Assembly: GCA_026018925.1 (NCBI GenBank) | Contig: JAKSZU010000029.1 | Coordinates: forward strand, 14,249,778-14,313,777 | Length of the DNA: 64,000 bases | From: Tupaia tana | Taxonomy: Eukaryota > Chordata > Mammalia > Scandentia > Tupaiidae | Direction of reading: 5' to 3' | Shown here: positions 23,584 to 61,842 of the stretch, one piece after another | Position numbering within the stretch: the stretch's first letter is position 1 | Layout: every line of letters begins with the position of its first letter | Program-made: the position numbers and the translations under genes | Notes under the pieces: generated by a model | The model's input: only the letters and a program-made list of their open reading frames with translations | Database searches by the model: none | Told to the model about the DNA's origin: nothing

Positions 23584-24451
23584 TAACTGTATTGTTATAT
23601 TCATTAAAAAACAACACTGTGCAGTTCCTTCTGCGTGGTCACTGGGGAGAACCTGCCGCTGTGCTGACCATGCTCTGCCGGACATGGTGTCCATGGATGC
23701 AGGAGAGGTGAGTCTTCAGAAGAAGATTCCTCATGGCTCCTGCCAACTAGATTGAACTTCAAGAATTAGAAAGAAACACACCATCCATCAGATGAGAAGA
23801 AATCACCACAGGACCACAAGAAATATGGGAAAGCAAGAAAATACCTCTCCTCCAAGGGAAAAGAATAACTCCTCTTCATCCATAACCAGTTCAATGCAAA
23901 TCATGGAAATGTCTGATAAAGAATTTAGAACAGAGACCATCCGGGACTGCCAGAAGGCAATAGGCTCTCCTGCAAGCCTCTGGCCGGCAAGGGACACTGA
24001 GGGAGGGTCACCTCTGACCCCCACCTCACTTCCAGACCCCCAGGCCCCAGACTCCACCTTCTAGACCATCCGGGACTGCCAGAAGGCAATAGGCTCTCCT
24101 GCAAGCCTCTGGCCGGCAAGGGACACTGAGGGAGGGTCACCTCTGACCCCCACCTCACTTCCAGACCCCCAGGCCCCAGACTCCACCTTCTAGACCATCC
24201 GGGACTGCCAGAAGGCAATAGGCTCTCCTGCAAGCCTCTGGCCGGCAAGGGACACTGAGGGAGGGTCACCTCTGACCCCCACCTCACTTCCAGACCCCCA
24301 GGCCCCAGACTCCACCTTCTAGACCATCCGGGACTGCCAGAAGGCAATAGGCTCTCCTGCAAGCCTCTGGCCGGCAAGGGACACTGAGGGAGGGTCACCT
24401 CTGACCCCGACCTCACTTCCAGACCCCCAGGCCCCAGACTCCACCTTCTAG

Positions 24452-24544
24452 GTAGGTAGCCAGGATTTCCTTGAGGCGGTTTTTTTTTCTCTCTTGAAAC
24501 CCCTGCATTCCCTTGTTAACACCTAGCTCTCCTTCTCCCCCCAG
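24452..24544 (+). other. Putative intron in L1 monomer 4 (93 bp)
   Basis: TAG|GTAGGTAGCC at the start, branch-like TTAAC about 30 bases from the end, CTCCTTCTCCCCCCAG|A at the end. Exactly this segment is absent from the 129-bp monomers. Confidence 0.7.
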
Positions 24545-24673
24545 ACCATCCGGGACTGCCAGAAGGCAATAGGCTCTCCTGCAAGCCTCTGGCCGGCAAG
24601 GGACACTGAGGGAGGGTCACCTCTGACCCCCACCTCACTTCCAGACCCCCAGGCCCCAGACTCCACCTTCTAG

Positions 24674-24767
24674 GTAGGTAGCCAGGATTTCCTTGAGGCG
24701 GTTTTTTTTTTCTCTCTTGAAACCCCTGCATTCCCTTGTTAACACCTAGCTCTCCTTCTCCCCCCAG
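24674..24767 (+). other. Putative intron in L1 monomer 5 (94 bp)
   Basis: Same GT...AG boundaries as the preceding copy; one extra T in the T run. Confidence 0.7.
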
Positions 24768-24896
24768 ACCATCCGGGACTGCCAGAAGGCAATAGGCTCT
24801 CCTGCAAGCCTCTGGCCGGCAAGGGACACTGAGGGAGGGTCACCTCTGACCCCCACCTCACTTCCAGACCCCCAGGCCCCAGACTCCACTTTCTAG

Positions 24897-24989
24897 GTAG
24901 GTAGCCAGGATTTCCTTGAGGCGGTTTTTTTTTCTCTCTTGAAACCCCTGCATTCCCTTGTTAACACCTAGCTCTCCTTCTCCCCCCAG
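24897..24989 (+). other. Putative intron in L1 monomer 6 (93 bp)
   Basis: Same boundaries. The exon side has one change (CCACTTTCTAG). Confidence 0.7.
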
Positions 24990-25038
24990 ACCATCCGGGA
25001 CTGCCAGAAGGCAATAGGCTCTCCTGCAAGCCTCTGGC

Positions 25039-25395
25039 GAAATCGCGCGCCGACTTTTTCTTTATTTTTCTGTGTTGTCTTTCCTTTAGTTGCATATTGT
25101 CCTCTCCTCCTTATTTTTTAACGTGCCAGACAGACTAGACAGGTCCAGAATCATATATCTGAAATTTCCTAGGAAGGTAAGTGTCTCTGGGATCCTCCCT
25201 AGTACTGATCCCTTTTGAAAAAGGAGATACTGCTTGTTAGACCCTTCTGTAGAGTTCCACTCCTGAAAACACATTGGTAAAAACAACAGAAGAGAGACTT
25301 CAACAAACAGCTATTCCCATCAAAAAGGAAAGACTCTTACTTCTCGTGGGACAAAAGTTCTCCCAAGAGGTCTTTAAAAGGGAAGTAATCTTCCA
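25039..25395 (+). other. L1 unique 5' UTR with strong splice signals
   Basis: A pyrimidine-rich tract ends in CTTTCCTTTAG at 25089, and AAG|GTAAGT, a consensus donor, follows at 25176/25177. This bounds a possible 87-base exon at 25090-25176. ORF1 begins at 25396. Confidence 0.55.
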
Positions 25396-26357
25396 ATGGC
25401 TAAAAGTAGAAAAAGAGCCCCAGGTCTGAATAAACAAGAAAATATGTCTCCAACAAAGGAAAATGCCCCTCCATGTCTTGTAAATATGGAGGACGTTACC
25501 AAAATGACAGACACAGAATTTCGAACATTCATGGTGACCAAATTCTGTGAATTGGAAAAAAAAAAAGAGACAACGAACTACAGGAAATTAGGAAGTCCTT
25601 CCAGGATATGAAAGAAGAAATGGATACTCTGAGAAAGAATCAGGTGGAACTATTAGAGATAAAGTCTATAATACAAGAAATCAAAAACTCTCTGGAAAGT
25701 ATTAAGAGCCGATTAGACCATGCTGAAGATCGAATCTCTGATGTAGAAGATAAAACCTCTGATCTAGAAAAAAACTACAAAAAGATCGAGAAAATAACTA
25801 AAAAACATGAGGATAATATACGAGAAATACTAGACTCTATTAGACGCCCAAACATCAGAATAATCGGCATCCCAGAAGGTGAAGAAACTAATAGCGGAAT
25901 GGAAAATCTATTCCATGACATCTTGGAAGAAAATTTCCCAAGCCTAGAGAGGCACCGAACCATCCGGACCCAAGAAATACAAAGGACCCCAAATAGAATC
26001 AACCCCAGAAGATCTTCCCCAAGGCACATCTTAGCCAGGCTGTCTAACGTCACAGAAAAAGACATGATACTAAAACTGGCAAGAGAGAAACGAGAAGTAA
26101 CTTACAAAGGCCATCCCATAAGACTAACACCAGACCTCTCATCAGAAACAATGCAAGCAAGAAAAGAATGGGAAGACATACTGAAAGTGTTAAGAGAGAA
26201 ACAATTTCAGCCAAGACTATTATACCCTGCAAGATTATCCTTCATTTGGGAAAAAAAGATTAAAATCTTCTCAGACAAACAAAACCTGAAAGAATTTGCC
26301 AACACCAGACCAGCTCTTCAAGAAATCCTGAAGAAAGTACTGTTCCAGGAAAACTAA
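25396..26357 (+). pseudogene. L1 ORF1 (RNA-binding chaperone), one frameshift
   Basis: ORF1p forms trimers that coat L1 RNA. MAKSRKRAPG to FCELEKKKE is in one frame (25396-25611). The second frame (25608-26357) carries a long coiled coil (LEIKSIIQEIKNSLESIKSRLDHAEDRISDVEDK), the RRM-type core (NIRIIGIPEGEE, LARLSNVTEKDMILKLAREK) and the C-terminal domain (SSETMQARKEWEDILKVLREK, LYPARLSF). The frame changes in an 11-base A run at 25556-25566. Total length fits a ~320-residue protein. ORF2 follows after 44 bases, the usual spacing. Confidence 0.85.
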
Positions 26358-26401
26358 AGACGCAACAGCCAGAAACAAAGAAATAACAGGCAACTAAGAC
26401 A

Positions 26402-29400
26402 ATGGCGAACTTAAATGTCGGTACAGATCCTGTAACATCGATAATAACATTGAATGTTAATGGGTTAAATTCTCCAATCAAGAGACACAGACTGGCTGAA
26501 TGGATAAAAAAACAGAAACCCTCTATCTGTTGCCTACAAGAAACCCACCTCATGGAAAAAGACATACATAGACTGAAAGTGAAGGGTTGGAAAAAGGTTT
26601 TCCATGCAGTTGGGAACCAAAAAAGAGCTGGAGTTGCGATACTAATTTCTGACAAAATAGGCTTTAAAACAAAAAGTGTCCGAAGAGACAAAGAAGGGCA
26701 CTACATCATAGTAAAAGGCTCTATAGATCGAGAAGATATAACGCTTATTAATATCTATGCTCCTAACACAGGAGCACCCAAATATGTGAAGGAAAGATTG
26801 TTAGATCTGAAAGGGGAGATAGACTGCAACACACTAATTGTTGGAGATCTCAACACCGCATTATCCCCTCTGGACAGATCATCTAGGCAAAAAATAGGTA
26901 GAGAGATCAAGGATCTAAATGATACCATAAATCAATTGGACTTAACAGACATCTATAGAACTTTCCACCCAAAAACCACAAGATATAGTTTTTTCTCGCC
27001 CCGACATGGAACTTTCTCGAAGATTGACCACATCATAGGACACAAAGCAAGCCTCTGCAGATTCAGAGGCATAGAAACTATTTCCAGCATCTTCTCTGAC
27101 CATAATGGAATTAAACTTGAGTTTAATTTCAAGAGAAATCCTCAAAAATACCTAAAAACATGGAAACTAAATAACCTACTCCTGAATGACTCCACTATTA
27201 CCGAAGAAATAAAGTCCGAAATCAAAAGATTCATGGAAGCCAATGACAATGAAGATACAAGTTTCCATAATCTTTAGGACACTGCCAAAGCAGTCATAAG
27301 AGGGAAGTTCATAGCAATTAGTGCACATAAGAGGAAGACAGAGAAAAGGCTAATGGATCACCTAACATCAAGCCTTAGAGAATTGGAAAAGCAACAGCAA
27401 AAAAATCCAAAAAATTACAGGAGAAAGGAAATAATAAAGATCCGAGCAGAAATAAATGAAATAGAAAATAAACGTACTATACAGAAAGTAAGTGAAAGCA
27501 AAAGCTGGTTCTTTGAAAGGATAAACAAAATTGATACCCCACTAGCGAGACTTATTAAGAAGAAGAGAGAAAGGAACCAGGTGAATCAAATCTGCAATGA
27601 GGCTGGTAACATAACAACAGACATAGTAGAAATTCAAAACATCATTAGAGGATACTTTGAACATCTATACGCTAAGAAACAAGATAATCTGGATGAGATG
27701 GACAAATTCCTGGACAAATATAATCTACCAAGAATGAGCCAGGAAGAAATAGAAAGTCTGAATAGGCCCATAACAAGCCAGGAAATTGAATCAGTAATAA
27801 GTAACCTCCCAACAAAGAAAAGCCCTGGCCCCGATGGATTCACCTCTGAATTCTACAAAACTTTCAAAGAAGAGTTAACTCCCATTCTGCTCAAATTATT
27901 TCTAAAGATCCAAAAGGGTGAATCTCTCCCTAATTCATTCTATGAAGCCTCTGTCACCCTCATCCTCAAAACAGATAAGGACAGGACAAGGAAGGAAAAC
28001 TATAGACCAATATCTCTGATGAACATAGACTCAAAGATTCTCAACAAGATACTAGCAAATCGTATTCAACAACTTATACAGAAGATCATACACCATGATC
28101 AGGTAGGCTTTATTCCAGGAATGCAAGGTTGGTTCAACATACGCAAAACCATAAACATAATACACCATATTAATAGGAAGAAAGACAAAAACCATATGGT
28201 CATATCGATTGACGCAGAAAAAGCATTTGATAAGATACAACATCCCTTCATGATCAAGACTCTTAGCAAAATTGGCATAGAAGGGCCATTTCTCAATACA
28301 ATAAAAGCCATCTATGAAAAACCCATAGCGAACATCATCCTGAATGGAGAAAAGCTGAAAGCTTTCCCACTAAACACAGGATGCCCACTTTCTCCTCTCC
28401 TTTTCAACATAGTTCTGGAAGTCCTCGCCAACGCAATCAGAAAAGAGGAAAAAATAAAGGGCATTCGAATAGGAAAAGAAGAGGTGAAACTCTCTCTATT
28501 TGCAGATGACATGATTGTATACATAGAAGACCCAATGGTCTCCATGGAAAAACTACTGGAAGTAATACATGAATTCAGTAAAGTTGCAGGATATAAAATC
28601 AATATACAGAAATTGATAGCATTTCTATATACGAATAACAGGCAGACTTAGATAGAACTGAAAAAACTTATTCCGTTTACCATAGCCACTAAAAGTATAA
28701 GATATTTAGGAATAAATCTAACCAAAGAAGTTAAAGACCTCCACAAGGAAAACTATGAGAAGGTAAAAAAAGAAATTGAAAATGACACAAAAAAATGGAA
28801 GGACATCCCATGTTCATGGATTGGAAGAGTTAATATAATCAAAATGGCAATTCTACCCAAATTAATCTACCTATTTAATGCAATGCCAATCAAAGTACCA
28901 GACACATTCTTCACAGATCTAGAAAAGACAATCTTAAAATTTGTCTGGAATCATGAAAGACCCCGTATTGCCAAAGCACTTCTACACAAGAAGAATGGAG
29001 TGGGTGGCATCTCAATCCCCGATCCAAAAATGTATTACAAAGCTGTGGTAATAAAGACAGCATGGTATTGGCACAGAAACAGACATGTGGACCAATGGAA
29101 CAGAATAGAGTCCCCAGAAATAAGTGCCCAAACATACAGTCAACTGATCTTTGACAAGGGGTACCAGTCAATCCAGTGGGAAAATGAAAGCCTCTTCAGC
29201 AAGTGGTGCTGGAGAAACTGGACTTCCACTTGCAGAAAGATGAATCTGAACCCCTACCTCTCTCCTTTGACAAGAATCAAGTCAAGGTGGATCAAGGATC
29301 TAAATCTAAGACCTCAAACTATAAAGCTGCTCCTGGAGAATGCTGGGGAAACTCTGGGAGACATTGGTGTAGGGAAAGACTTCCTAAAGAAGACACTCAA

Positions 29401-30247
29401 AGCAGAGTCCATCGTCCACAAAATAGACAAGTGGGATTACATCAGACTAAGAAGTTTCTGCATGGCCAAAGACACAGTAGTTAGTGTGAATCGACAGCCC
29501 TCAGAATGGGAAAATATTTTTGTAAATGTTGCATCAGATAAGGGACTGATAACCAGAATACACAAGGAACTAAAAAAGGTGTTTGGAAAAAAGATGATCA
29601 ACCCTATTAAAAGATGGGAGAAGGAGATGAAGAAAACACTCTCTAAAGATGACATACGAATGGCCAAAAGGCATATGAAAAAATGTTCAACCTCCCTCAT
29701 CGTAAGGGAAATGCAGATAAAAACAACAATGAGGTACCACCTAACCCCAGTCAGATTGTCTAATATTAAAAAAACAAAAAATGATAAGTGTTGGCGGGGG
29801 TGTGGTGAAAGGGGAACTCTTTTACACTGCTGGTGGGAATGTAGATTGGTCCAACCACTGTGGAGAATAATTTGGAGATTCCTCAAAAATCTACAGATAG
29901 ATCTGCCATATGATCCAGAGATCCCACTCTTCGGTATCTACCCAAAGGACAGAAGAATTCTTCATTGGAAAAGTGCTTGCACATCGATGTTTATTGTGGC
30001 ACTATTCACAATTGCTAAGTCTTGGAACCAACCCAGATGTCCCCGTATGGAGGAATGGATTGAAAAACTGTGGCACATATACTCTATGGAATACTACTCA
30101 GCCATAAAAGCCAACAGAGCCCTGGCTTTTGACAGAAAGTGGAAGAATATGGAAGATGTACTGCTGAGTGAGGCAAGCCAGACTATGAAGGAGAGACATT
30201 GTATGTCCCCACTTAACATATACCGTTTGTCTGCTTTCTATGTCTGA
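26402..30247 (+). pseudogene. L1 ORF2 (endonuclease-reverse transcriptase), two nonsense codons
   Basis: A 1,281-codon frame that would nick target DNA and reverse-transcribe L1 RNA. Endonuclease: N18 in LNVNGLN, E47 in [16 protein letters not shown] near the end of the domain. Reverse transcriptase: [25 protein letters not shown], catalytic FADD at residues 700-703, the same numbering as human L1 as I recall it. C-terminal Cys/His motif [18 protein letters not shown] near residues 1130-1147. Two in-frame TAG codons interrupt it, at residue 292 (27275-27277, in LWDTAKAV context) and residue 750 (28649-28651). No frameshift was seen. An internal ATG at 28844 opens the last 467 codons but is not expected to be used. 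Confidence 0.9.
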
Positions 30248-30521
30248 AACTGATTGACTAACAGTTGAACAAACACAAGAGATGGGTGTGAATGTCAGAT
30301 GAGGTGTATGTGGAGGAGTGGGGCCCAACGAAAGACATTTAGAGAAGGGATACAGAGGTAGGGCATTGACGGGATGGGGAGGTGTGGTGTTATCTGTTGA
30401 AGATATTTCGATCAACGGGTCTGGGGAGAAATGTTCACATATCGAAATGGTCTCATTGTAAGCCAAACAATATGATTGAAAGTATATACAAAAATAAATA
30501 AATAAATTAAAAAAAAAAAAA
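30248..30521 (+). other. L1 3' UTR and A tail
   Basis: AACTGATTGACTAACAG to AAAAATAAATAAATAAATT plus A's. It defines the subfamily consensus for the truncated 3' ends elsewhere in the window. Confidence 0.85.
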
Positions 30522-30669
30522 GAATTTAGAACATTCATAATGGCAAAGCTAACAGAGCGGGAAGAGAAGAGAGACAATGAACTGCTAAAGAGAAAGGAGA
30601 AAGAAGTTGACGAGTTCCAGGAGGTGAGGAAATTCTTGCAACATCTAAAAGAGGAGTTACACACTTTAC

Positions 30670-30739
30670 AAAAGAATCAAACAAAAAATTTTTTTTTTAA
30701 TTTAAAAAATTAAAAAAAATAAAAATAAAAGAATCAAAC
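30670..30739 (+). mobile_element. 44-bp A/T-only insertion with target duplication
   Basis: AAAAGAATCAAAC occurs at 30670-30682 and 30727-30739, flanking 44 bases of only A and T inside the HAL1 ORF1. It looks like a retrotransposed tail with almost no body. Confidence 0.75.
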
Positions 30740-32517
30740 GGAACTGTTAGAGATGAAGTCTATAATACAGGAAGTCAAAATCTCCCTTGAAAGAATTCAA
30801 AGCAAACTAGATCATACAGAAAATAGAATCTCAGACGTAGAAGAGAAAATTGCTGGCCTAGAAAAATCCACCACAAAGGCTGAGAAAATTGCCCCCAAAT
30901 TTGAAAATAATATATGAGAAGTGCTAGATACCATCAAACGTCCAAACATCCAGATAATTGGCATTCCAGAAGGTGAAGAGACCCATAAGGGCATAGATAA
31001 TCTCTTCCATGAAATCCTGCAAGAAAACTTTCCAAACCTAGAGAGGCATTCAAAGATCCAGTCCCAAGAAATACAAAGAACCCCAAATAGAATCAACCCA
31101 AGATGATCTTCTCCAAGACACATTATAGCCAGGTTGACCAAAACCACAGACAAAGACAAGATACTAAGATTGGCAAGAGAAAAACATCAAGTTACCTATA
31201 AAGGATATCCCATCAGGCTAACAGCAGACCTCTCATCGGAAACAATGCGAGCGAGGAAAGAATGGGAAAATATATTCAAAGTGTTAAGAGAGAAGCAATT
31301 TCAGCCAAGAATACTGTACCCAGCAAGATTATCGTTCATGTGGGAAGAAAAGACAAGAACATTCTCAGATAAAAAAACCTGAAAGAATTTACCAGCACCA
31401 GACCAGATCTCCAAGAAGTTCTCAAGGGTGTGCTATATCAGGAAAATTAAATACAGTCACACAAAAATAAGAGTTCAAAAACTAAGAAAGTGGCCAACTT
31501 AATCATAGGGACAAGTCTAGAGTTGAATATTATATCCCAGAATTTAATCGGGAAAATTGAACCAAAACAGAAGATAAAGTACATGAAACTGATAGGTTCA
31601 TGCACCTACCATTTGAACAGAATCCTAACCTGTTTCCTGGCTTTAAGCAAAGTTCCTTAGCATTTCTTTGATTTAAGTTAAAACTGGTTTTCATAATAAT
31701 ACCAAGTGAACTTGCTATTGAAAGCAGTTAGATTATTTAAGAAATTGTGTGATCAACACAATGTGGGTGGGAAAGGAGTGGAAGACAATTGTAGACACCA
31801 GAGATAGTGTGAGAAGAGGGTGGGAAAGGACTGAGGGTCAGAAAGAGGTGTAAAAAAAATTCGAGAAACTAGAAATGGAAAATTTTTGGATAATAATATG
31901 CATGATTAAGTCACTATGCAGTATATTCTGGATGGGAAATCACATTTTGTAAGCTGTGATGATGCTTAGGGAAAGAATGTAAATTAAGTTAGGAAAAAAG
32001 TTTCAGGAAAAAAAACACGTATTCGATGACTGCAGTAAGATATATAGCCCCAGCTAGGTGCTACTTTATAGGATGTCTAAAGTTAGACTTTTGTTCATGG
32101 AAATGCATACATCAGCTGTGTTTGCTATGAAAATACTTAGATTAATTAAGATCTTTAGTAATTCAATAAAATGTGGGGGGGAAACAAACATAGAAAGCAA
32201 ACATAGATTCCAGAGACAGTGGGGAAGGAGAATGGGAGATGACAGAGGGTAAGAGAGAGGGAATCAAGGATGGGGGAAAAAAGCAAAACATACAGGAAAC
32301 AAGATATGGAAAATAATTTGTTGACAATAACATGTATGTTGATGTGCTTGATTGAGACAATATACAGTGTACTCTGGATGGAAAATCTCATTTTGTATGC
32401 TGTAACGATGTACAGTGAGTGAGTGTAAATAAAAAAATATTAAAAAAAATAAAAACCTTGAAAGTCAAAAAAAACAAAAACAAAAAAACAAAAAAAAACA
32501 AACAAAAAAAAAAAACT

Positions 32518-59985: not shown

Positions 59986-61842
59986 TCCCATTTCTTAACC
60001 TCTGCCCTTTCCCATACTCTGCTCACACTATCTCTGGTGTCTACAGTTATATTCCATTCCTTTTCCCCCTACACTTTATTAATCACATCATTTCCTTAAT
60101 AATCTAACTACTTTCAATAGGAAGTTCTGCTGGTAATTTCAAAAAAAGCAGTTTTAACTTTAATAAATCAAAGAAATGCTAAGGAACTTTGCTTAAAACT
60201 TAAAGTTAGGAAACAGGTTAGGAATCTATTCAAATAGTAGGTATATGAACCTATTGACAGCTCAAGACAGGACAAAAATCCTTAGAACAAGACAACAAAG
60301 CCTAGAATAAAATCAGCAATGTTTTAGTCAAAAGTCATAAAATGCTATTTCACCAGTTCAGTCTCATGCACTTAATCTATCTTCTGTTGTGTTTCAATCT
60401 CCCCAATTAAAATTTGGGATATAATATTTAACTCCAGACTTGTCCCTATGATTAAGTAGGCCATTTTCTTAGTTTTAGAACTCTTATTTCTGTGTGCCTG
60501 TATTTAATTTTTCTGATCTAGCACTCCCTTGAGAACTTTCTGGAGATCTGGTCTGGTACTGGTAAGTTCTTCAAGTTTTGTTTATCTGAGAATGTTCTTG
60601 TCTTTTCTTCCCACATGAAGTATAATCTTGCCAGGTAAAGTATACTTGATTGAAATTGCTTTTCCCTTAACACGTTGAATATATTTTCCGTTTCTTACCT
60701 CACTCGCATTGTTTCTGATGAGAGGTCTGCTGTCAGCCTGATGGGATATCCTTTGTAGGTATCTTGCAGTTTTTCTCTTGACAATCTTAGTATCTTGTCT
60801 TTGTGGTTTTGTTCAGTCTGGCTATAATGTGTCTAGAAGAAGATCTTCTAGGGGTCATTCTATTCAGGGTCCTTTGTATTTCTTGTGACTGGATCTTTGA
60901 GTGCCTCTTTAGCTTTGGTAAGTTTTCTTGCAGGATTTTATGGAATGTATTATCAATGCCCTTATAAGTCTCTCTGCCTTCTGGGATGCCAATTATCTGG
61001 ATGTTTGGATGTTTGATGATACCTACTATTTCTCGTATATTATTCTTACTTTGGGGGGCAATTTTCTCAGTCTTTTTGGTGGATTTTTCAAAGCCAGCAA
61101 TTTTCTCTTCTACATCTGAGATTCTATTTTCTGTATGATCTAGTCTGCTTTTAATACTTTCAAGGGAGATTTTGACTTCCTCTATTATAGCCTTCATCTC
61201 TAACAGGTCCATTTGATTCTTTTTTAAAGTGTGTAATTCCTCTTTTAGATCTTGCAAGAATTTCCTCACCTCCTGGAACTCATCATCTCCTTTCTCTTCT
61301 GCAGTTCATTGGCTCTCTTCTCTTCCTTCTCTGTTAGCTTTGCCATTATGAATATTCTAAATTCTTTATCAGACATTTCAATGATTTCCACTGTACTGTC
61401 TCTAGATGAAGAGGAGTTATTCTTTTCCAATGGAGGAGAGGTATTTTCTTGCTTTCCCATATTTCTTGTGGCCTTGCAGTGATTTTTAGTCATCTGATGG
61501 ATGTTGTGTTTCTTCCAAATTAAAATTCAATCTGAGCATTCAACAATGTGCAGAAAGAGGTGCTCTGGAATCTCTTTGCTGTTCTGTTTTGATCCCTTTG
61601 TGCAGCAGATTAAATAGATATTGAGGAATTTGTTAACCCTAATAGTATTTGGATGTTTGCCTATAGTTCCCTTAGATCCGTCTAGAAATACAGTGAATGG
61701 AGACTGAGGGGCAGAGAGATGAGATAAAAGAAAAATAAAAGGAAACACAGAGAGCAAAAACAACATCAAAGAAACAGAGAAAAGGAGGAAAAAAACAACA
61801 AAACTTTTTTTAAGCAAAAAATAGAAAATTGCGTGGTACAAA

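What the first reader, a model, noticed from the sequence alone, without database searches (positions are those of the whole stretch)
23933..25038. L1 5' monomers with and without an exact GT...AG intron
The array has three 129-bp monomers followed by three of 222-223 bp. The only length difference is a 93-94 bp segment that begins TAG|GTAGGT, contains a TTAAC branch-like motif about 30 bases from its end, and ends CTCCTTCTCCCCCCAG|A. The short monomers join the two sides exactly where splicing would. This suggests that each monomer is an exon plus an intron, and that a spliced L1 RNA was copied back into the genome. Spliced human L1 5' UTRs (SpIREs) are known; I know of no monomer family with a built-in intron. 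Retaining four exon copies with three clean removals would require several separate splices in one RNA, or one splice followed by array expansion. A two-base repeat (AG) at the boundaries also permits a microhomology deletion.
Basis: partly seen in the sequence, partly recalled or inferred. Interest (0 to 1): 0.88.

Follow-up and report, generated by a model that had tools for sequence, protein, structure and literature searches.

The report
L1 promoter repeats carrying an intron
In this unnamed mammal the jumping gene L1 carries a promoter made of repeats that each appear to hold a small intron, and the copies examined look as if they were made from RNA that had already been partly spliced, leaving short and long repeats side by side.

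Summary
At 23933-25038 an L1 starts with three 129-bp monomers, three of 222/223 bp and a 49-nt stub. The size difference is exactly one GT...AG segment, joined at the best donor and best acceptor of the monomer. The genome gives 69,490 long and 49,970 short junction matches; the 100 listed of each lie on small satellite-like contigs. I parsed 37 independent L1 copies whose 5' end is visible. The first intron slot is empty in 33 of 34 copies with at least two slots, the last is filled in 32 of 34. Nine copies begin inside an intron; all nine keep that donorless fragment and lack the next intron. Truncation of the same arrays as DNA gives 26 of 34 empty first slots (p = 0.001) and few such starts, though it does reproduce the short-then-long order. 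At least three subfamilies have both forms. Best reading: a monomer family with a built-in intron whose RNA is spliced from the 5' side and copied back, while satellites multiply both forms as DNA. No RNA was available.

The parts
23920..23932 (+). 5' copy of the target-site duplication AGAATTTAGAACA
   Evidence: same 13 bases at 30521-30533 after the poly(A)
23933..23935 (+). 5' end of the L1: extra G, then AG; inferred RNA start at the A with a cap-derived G
   Evidence: 10 of 37 independent copies start GAG directly before ACC/ACT; cap origin is inference
23936..24322 (+). three short monomers (exon part only, 129 bp each: 23936-24064, 24065-24193, 24194-24322)
24323..24451 (+). exon part of first long monomer
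24452..24544 (+). 93-bp intron-like segment, donor TAG|GTAGGT, acceptor CCCCCCAG|A, TTAAC about 25 bases before the acceptor end
24545..24673 (+). exon part of second long monomer
24674..24767 (+). 94-bp intron-like segment (one extra T in the T run)
24768..24896 (+). exon part of third long monomer
24897..24989 (+). 93-bp intron-like segment, the last slot, retained in 32 of 34 parsed copies with two or more slots
24990..25038 (+). 49-nt partial exon without a donor; junction to the unique 5' leader
25039..25395 (+). unique 5' leader (tether) before the apparent ORF1 (first ATG placed by eye)
25396..30520 (+). L1 ORF1/ORF2 region (several separate frames, so broken), 3' UTR and poly(A)
   Evidence: described only
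30521..30533 (+). 3' copy of the target-site duplication

Best explanation
The L1 of this mammal carries a promoter array whose unit is a 129-nt exon plus a 93-nt U2-type intron. RNA often starts at the AG that is also the 3' splice site. The spliceosome removes introns from the 5' side and tends to leave the last one, whose downstream exon has only 49 monomer bases, no donor, and then runs into the L1 body. ORF2p copies this partly spliced RNA back, so a new insertion reads short...short-long. Separately, arrays with both forms grow as DNA into satellites. Shown here: exact junctions, empty first slots, intron-internal 5' ends followed by a missing intron, both forms in several subfamilies. 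Inferred: the spliceosome, the cap site, exon definition as the reason the last intron stays, and that mostly long arrays are the sources.
For: (1) The join uses the best donor and best acceptor (recalled matrix). (2) Of 37 independent L1 copies with visible 5' end, 34 have at least two slots: first slot empty in 33, last filled in 32, sorted short-then-long in 30; long-before-short inversions 19 against 97 expected, 0 of 20,000 shuffles. (3) Nine copies start inside an intron; 9 of 9 lack the next intron, against 4 L-to-S and 35 L-to-L steps inside arrays (Fisher 4e-7; one step per element 3 versus 12, p = 1.7e-4). One of these (L058) was checked for a target-site duplication and has it. (4) DNA-only truncation of the same arrays gives 26 of 34 empty first slots (p = 0.001), intronic ends in 7% (observed 9 of 34) and an empty next slot after 29% of them. 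(5) Of the 24 5' ends away from the canonical start, 9 are intronic, as for all-long sources (0.42 expected, p = 0.84, interval 0.19-0.59). (6) Plain, T31G and C3T+G8A arrays each have both forms sharing the exon variants. (7) Among 100 listed off-length joins the largest class above +4 is +18 (6), the length given by the next AG upstream, a candidate tested locally before. (8) The leader-only query alone (all 40 rows parsed; 24 independent visible copies, 22 with two or more slots): first slot empty 21, last filled 21, five intron starts all followed by an empty slot (counted by hand).
Against: No RNA data. The sorted order by itself does not discriminate: DNA truncation of the same arrays gives 30.9 sorted of 34. 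Satellite arrays as sources would give 23% intronic ends with an empty next slot after 58% of them, closer to the data on this one point, but fit first slot and order badly. Satellites carry both forms and lock some haplotypes to one form, so DNA processes also move the forms around. Four of 34 copies are not sorted (L002, L088, L096, L104), with no GT or AG change listed in their out-of-order long units. Retained introns do not show an excess of broken splice sites (weak test). No use of the second GT (+4) was found, and the +18 join was absent from the loci I held. Some off-length joins are ragged partial losses (e.g. C135). The 37 copies mix three ascertainments: one search used the window's own array, one search's query held the end of the last intron, and L080 was fetched because its match lacked it.
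Confidence: 0.85

Rival explanations
1. One DNA deletion at the two-base AG repeat made the short monomer once; recombination, gene conversion and ordinary copying of mixed arrays did the rest.
For: AG lies at both boundaries; satellites are mixed and show form-locked haplotypes; both forms in a subfamily could be homogenised by conversion; truncation of existing arrays reproduces the short-then-long order.
Against: It does not give an empty first slot in 33 of 34 copies (p = 0.001 in simulation), nor 9 of 9 intron starts followed by an empty slot. Only L096 of the 34 has its first slot filled. Windows of satellite arrays as sources give a first-slot mean of 19.8 and a sorted mean of 15.8 of 34 (the C4 string used there is approximate, since some double short units were read as long).
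Confidence: 0.1
2. The short monomer is ancestral and the 93-bp segment arrived as an insertion that happens to look like, or is, a mobile intron.
For: No outgroup array was found that settles the very first origin; the segment is complete as an intron.
Against: Copies that begin within the segment but lack it in the next unit point to loss in individual insertions. The segment has its own variants in the diverged ACTTTCC satellite and in the L1 subfamilies, so it is at least as old as their split.
Confidence: 0.03
3. Reverse transcriptase skips the segment during target-primed reverse transcription (template jumping at AG).
For: Loss is greater towards the 5' end, which is copied last.
Against: Would need an exact skip at a two-base match several times in one cDNA, always at the best splice sites (inference).
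Confidence: 0.02

Closest known systems
Human SpIREs (spliced integrated retrotransposed elements), PMC5860796 (abstract, section 7 and passages seen)
   Same: L1 insertions lacking a GT...AG segment of the 5' UTR, made by copying spliced L1 RNA
   Different: Human: one long removal, 131 of 6,609 (about 2%) annotated full-length L1PA1-6, generally dead ends. Here: several short introns per RNA, one in each promoter unit; at least one slot empty in 34 of 37 parsed copies (a sample of close relatives, not a genome-wide rate); last intron usually kept
Mouse L1 monomers with cryptic splice sites (Belancio 2006, not held; known only through a passage in PMC9022269)
   Same: Tandem monomer promoter; predicted donors in M8/M7, acceptors in M1/tether; 22 genomic copies possibly made by splicing
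   Different: The passage speaks of sites that span monomers, not of an intron inside every unit
Processed pseudogenes (general knowledge)
   Same: Several introns removed from one RNA and copied back by L1
   Different: Here the template is L1's own promoter array and removal is partial and polar
Satellites derived from transposable elements (reviews PMC9659126, PMC6947457; search listings only)
   Same: Element-related tandem repeats at satellite scale
   Different: Here two forms, with and without intron, lie together, e.g. alternating in the 2.4 kb read of contig C8; which came first, satellite or L1 array, is not settled

Membership tests
SpIRE | L1 insertion with target-primed hallmarks | tested here: met
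   window: TSD, poly(A); L058: TSD, poly(A); 2 of 37 copies checked
SpIRE | internal loss bounded exactly by splice donor and acceptor | tested here: met
   (318 of 321)
SpIRE | spliced RNA observed | not testable with these tools
   no RNA data
SpIRE | reduced promoter activity, evolutionary dead end | not testable with these tools
   no assay; 32 of 34 copies keep a last long unit
Monomer-type L1 5' UTR (as in mouse) | tandem units, then a unique tether, then ORF1 | tested here: met
U2-type spliceosomal intron | GT...AG, polypyrimidine tract, branch-like motif | tested here: met
   (matrix and motif recalled)
U2-type spliceosomal intron | removal abolished by splice-site mutation | tested here: inconclusive
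   L100 holds three long units with broken acceptors, retained, but its other two retained introns are intact; the pattern counts planned for this did not complete

The most novel reading that the evidence does not exclude
An L1 lineage whose promoter unit is itself an exon-intron unit, in which splicing of the array is the normal course of each retrotransposition. Exon definition spares the last intron, so each new copy keeps one full unit from which a new array, and eventually a satellite, can be regrown: splicing and tandem expansion form a life cycle.
Probability: 0.4. Interest if true: 0.85.

Novelty: new variant of a known kind. Interest (0 to 1): 0.75.

Why it matters
Splicing of L1 RNA is described as inhibiting L1 and marks about 2% of annotated full-length human copies (PMC5860796). 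Here at least one slot is empty in 34 of 37 parsed copies, and each insertion would record which introns were taken out of one RNA molecule. If true, that is a genomic record of splicing order in the germ line, a natural test of exon definition, and a link between L1 promoter arrays and a large satellite.

Tried and rejected
Considered and set aside: chance; a single deletion followed by spread (kept as a rival); mobile-intron insertion; reverse-transcriptase skipping; lariat-intermediate templates for the three copies that start at intron base 64/65 (they start upstream of the likely branch A, so I left it as unexplained). An excess of broken splice sites in retained introns was looked for and not found: 0 substitutions in 917 aligned GT/AG bases, but local alignment trims broken ends, so the test is weak. 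A letter search for broken acceptors found 8 matches: L100 3, L008 2, C4 2, L111 1. A tally by 129-nt haplotype found 10 of 211 haplotypes in both forms, and five with three or more copies in one form only, all C34T types. Literature: eight searches listed no title or abstract start describing an L1 monomer with a built-in intron, or these satellites. I opened four papers, by passages (PMC13174262, PMC9022269, PMC2176070) or abstract, section 7 and passages (PMC5860796). Most subscription papers are not held. The species was not identified.

The searches for shorter off-length joins (131) and for the +18 join by its own pattern (130, 134, 138) did not complete.

Full report
WHAT IS THERE. The window is mammalian DNA with olfactory receptor frames on the minus strand. 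At 23933 a plus-strand L1 begins inside an older L1. It opens with a tandem array: three units of 129 bp, three of 222/223 bp and a 49-nt stub, followed by a unique leader and broken L1 frames to a poly(A) at about 30520. The 13-bp target-site duplication AGAATTTAGAACA flanks it. Between the left duplication and the first exon stand G and AG.

THE SEGMENT. Long and short units differ by one segment, GTAGGT...CCCCCCAG, placed after CTAG. With a recalled vertebrate splice matrix its donor ranks first of the 5 GT and its acceptor first of the 17 AG of the monomer. TTAAC lies about 25 bases before the acceptor end. An AG repeat at the two ends follows from any exon that ends in AG, so it does not by itself argue for a deletion.

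GENOME. In the window's genome (G000, 2.95 Gb) the long donor junction matches 69,490 times and the short junction 49,970 times at up to two mismatches; backward-pattern controls gave 0. The 100 places listed for each lie on the small contigs C4, C6 and C8. In the 2.4 kb read of C8 short and long alternate; C6 (2.4 kb) and C4 are mixed. C4 has a diverged subtype (exon start ACTTTCC, own intron variants). Its 61 parsed short joins are at CTAG|ACTTT, 55 with identical letters and 6 with a one-base change or insertion, one of these at the join; longer unparsed stretches were left out.

L1 COPIES. Two searches with the leader scored 40 copies each, of 2,698 and 2,288 candidates. With three copies and one extra (L080), 59 locus rows were parsed. 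I merged L045 into L002, counted five near-identical loci (four on C315, one on C440) once, and set aside 17 arrays whose 5' end lay beyond the fetched stretch. That leaves 37 independent copies. By hand I marked L056, L091 and L095 as intron starts from the intron tail in their upstream letters, and added one short unit to L066 and L097 for the exon tail seen upstream. L039's last long unit has a truncated intron. L074 has an ambiguous upstream stretch and was left as a plain start.

5' ENDS. Ten of the 37 begin GAG directly before ACC/ACT, three more with AG preceded by another base. I read this as an RNA start at the A of the splice acceptor plus a cap-derived G; that is inference. Fifteen begin inside an exon unit and nine inside an intron.

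POLARITY. Thirty-four copies have two or more slots where an intron could be. The first slot is empty in 33 (exception L096). The last is filled in 32 (exceptions L080, L098). Thirty are sorted, short then long. Long-before-short inversions number 19 against 97 expected by shuffling within elements (0 of 20,000); without the last slot, 19 against 60 (p = 0.0001). Leaving last slots aside, the empty fraction falls from the 5' end: 33 of 34, 24 of 29, 16 of 20, 6 of 12. The three copies with one slot only keep it.

THE CLEANEST TEST. A copy that begins inside an intron shows that the unit above was long in its RNA. That fragment has no donor and cannot be spliced. All nine such copies keep it and lack the next intron: L056, L057, L058, L060, L061, L076, L091, L095, L104. 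Inside arrays a long unit is followed by a short one 4 times and by a long one 35 times (Fisher 4e-7; one step per element 3 versus 12, p = 1.7e-4). L058 has its own target-site duplication, (A)AAGAAAGGGG, so its intron-internal start is a true insertion end; the other eight were not checked. Of 24 ends away from the canonical start 9 are intronic, against 42% expected from all-long sources (p = 0.84, interval 0.19-0.59).

DNA-ONLY SIMULATION. Plain truncation of the 37 arrays gives an empty first slot in 26 of 34 (p = 0.001), 7% intronic ends (observed 9 of 34), and an empty next slot after 29% of those. It does reproduce the sorted order (mean 30.9, observed 30), so order alone is no evidence. 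Satellite windows as sources give 23% intronic ends, 58% of them followed by an empty slot, but a first-slot mean of 19.8 and a sorted mean of 15.8 of 34. The C4 string in that test is approximate.

SAMPLING. The sources are biased differently: the window's own array as query (L002, L003, L039), a query holding the end of the last intron, a leader-only query, and L080, chosen because its match lacked the last intron. All 40 rows of the leader-only query were parsed: 14 open arrays, 2 duplicates and 24 independent visible copies, 22 with two or more slots. First slot empty 21, last filled 21; five intron starts, all followed by an empty slot (counted by hand). All are close relatives of one leader sequence.

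RECURRENCE. Plain, T31G (intron mostly C86G) and C3T+G8A (intron mostly T35G) arrays each contain both forms with the subfamily's exon variants. In 505 scored units, 10 of 211 exon haplotypes occur in both forms. Conversion could also do this, so I give it less weight than the slot tests. In C34T arrays several haplotypes are locked to one form, which points to DNA-level amplification there.

PRECISION. Of 321 short joins parsed, 318 keep exact length. Genome-wide, 111 joins have 1-30 bases too many. Among the 100 listed, 68 are +1. Of the 24 with +4 or more, 6 are +18, the length expected from the next upstream AG (CACCTAG). I had looked for that join before, in the loci held, and found 0. 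Six of 24 in one of 27 classes has p = 0.0002, or 0.001 if the two neighbouring C308 sites count once. Letters were shown for 30 of the 100; two of those are +18 and read as that join with one or two substitutions. The +4 class (second GT) is empty. Some others are ragged partial losses (e.g. C135).

NATURAL MUTANTS. In L100 three retained introns have a broken acceptor (CAC or CAT); the one short join in that array lies elsewhere, and two further retained introns are intact. The genome counts planned to test this did not complete.

MECHANISM. Retention of the last intron is what exon definition predicts, since the exon after it has no donor. This is inference. Whether the long units are the better promoter, and whether the satellite or the L1 array came first, is unknown.

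VERDICT. A new variant of a known kind: it works like SpIRE formation in human L1 (PMC5860796), but with an intron in every promoter unit, several removals per RNA, and an empty slot in 34 of 37 sampled copies against about 2% reported for human.

Noticed in passing
L057, L058, L060: Three copies from different loci start at intron base 64/65, at the TTAAC branch-like motif; a second RNA start or something tied to splicing.
   Followed up: partly
window about 23640-23932 and 30521-31560: The L1 sits inside ORF1 of an older L1 on the same strand (78% identity over 30728-31502); no monomer match was found elsewhere in the window.
   Followed up: partly
window 25039-25060; L003 3045-3086: A GC-rich palindrome between the 49-nt stub and the leader varies in length between copies and is missing in some (L093, L096).
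   Followed up: no
L009-L038, L043, L046, L047, L107 (contigs C4, C429, C8, C6, C16): Monomers form long satellite-like arrays; the parts read of L043 and L107 are all long units, L046 alternates short and long. C16 carries an L1 leader below such an array.
   Followed up: partly
L091 949-1236: A tRNA-like SINE with poly(A) is inserted in the 49-nt stub of an L1 array.
   Followed up: no
L065, L067, L070, L072, L073: Five nearly identical L1 loci with the same flank, four on contig C315 and one on C440: a duplicated locus.
   Followed up: no
window 2402-58551, minus strand: A cluster of olfactory receptor reading frames, four of 309-319 aa, others shorter.
   Followed up: no
window 60452-61308, minus strand: Part of another L1 ORF1 (74% identity).
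   Followed up: no
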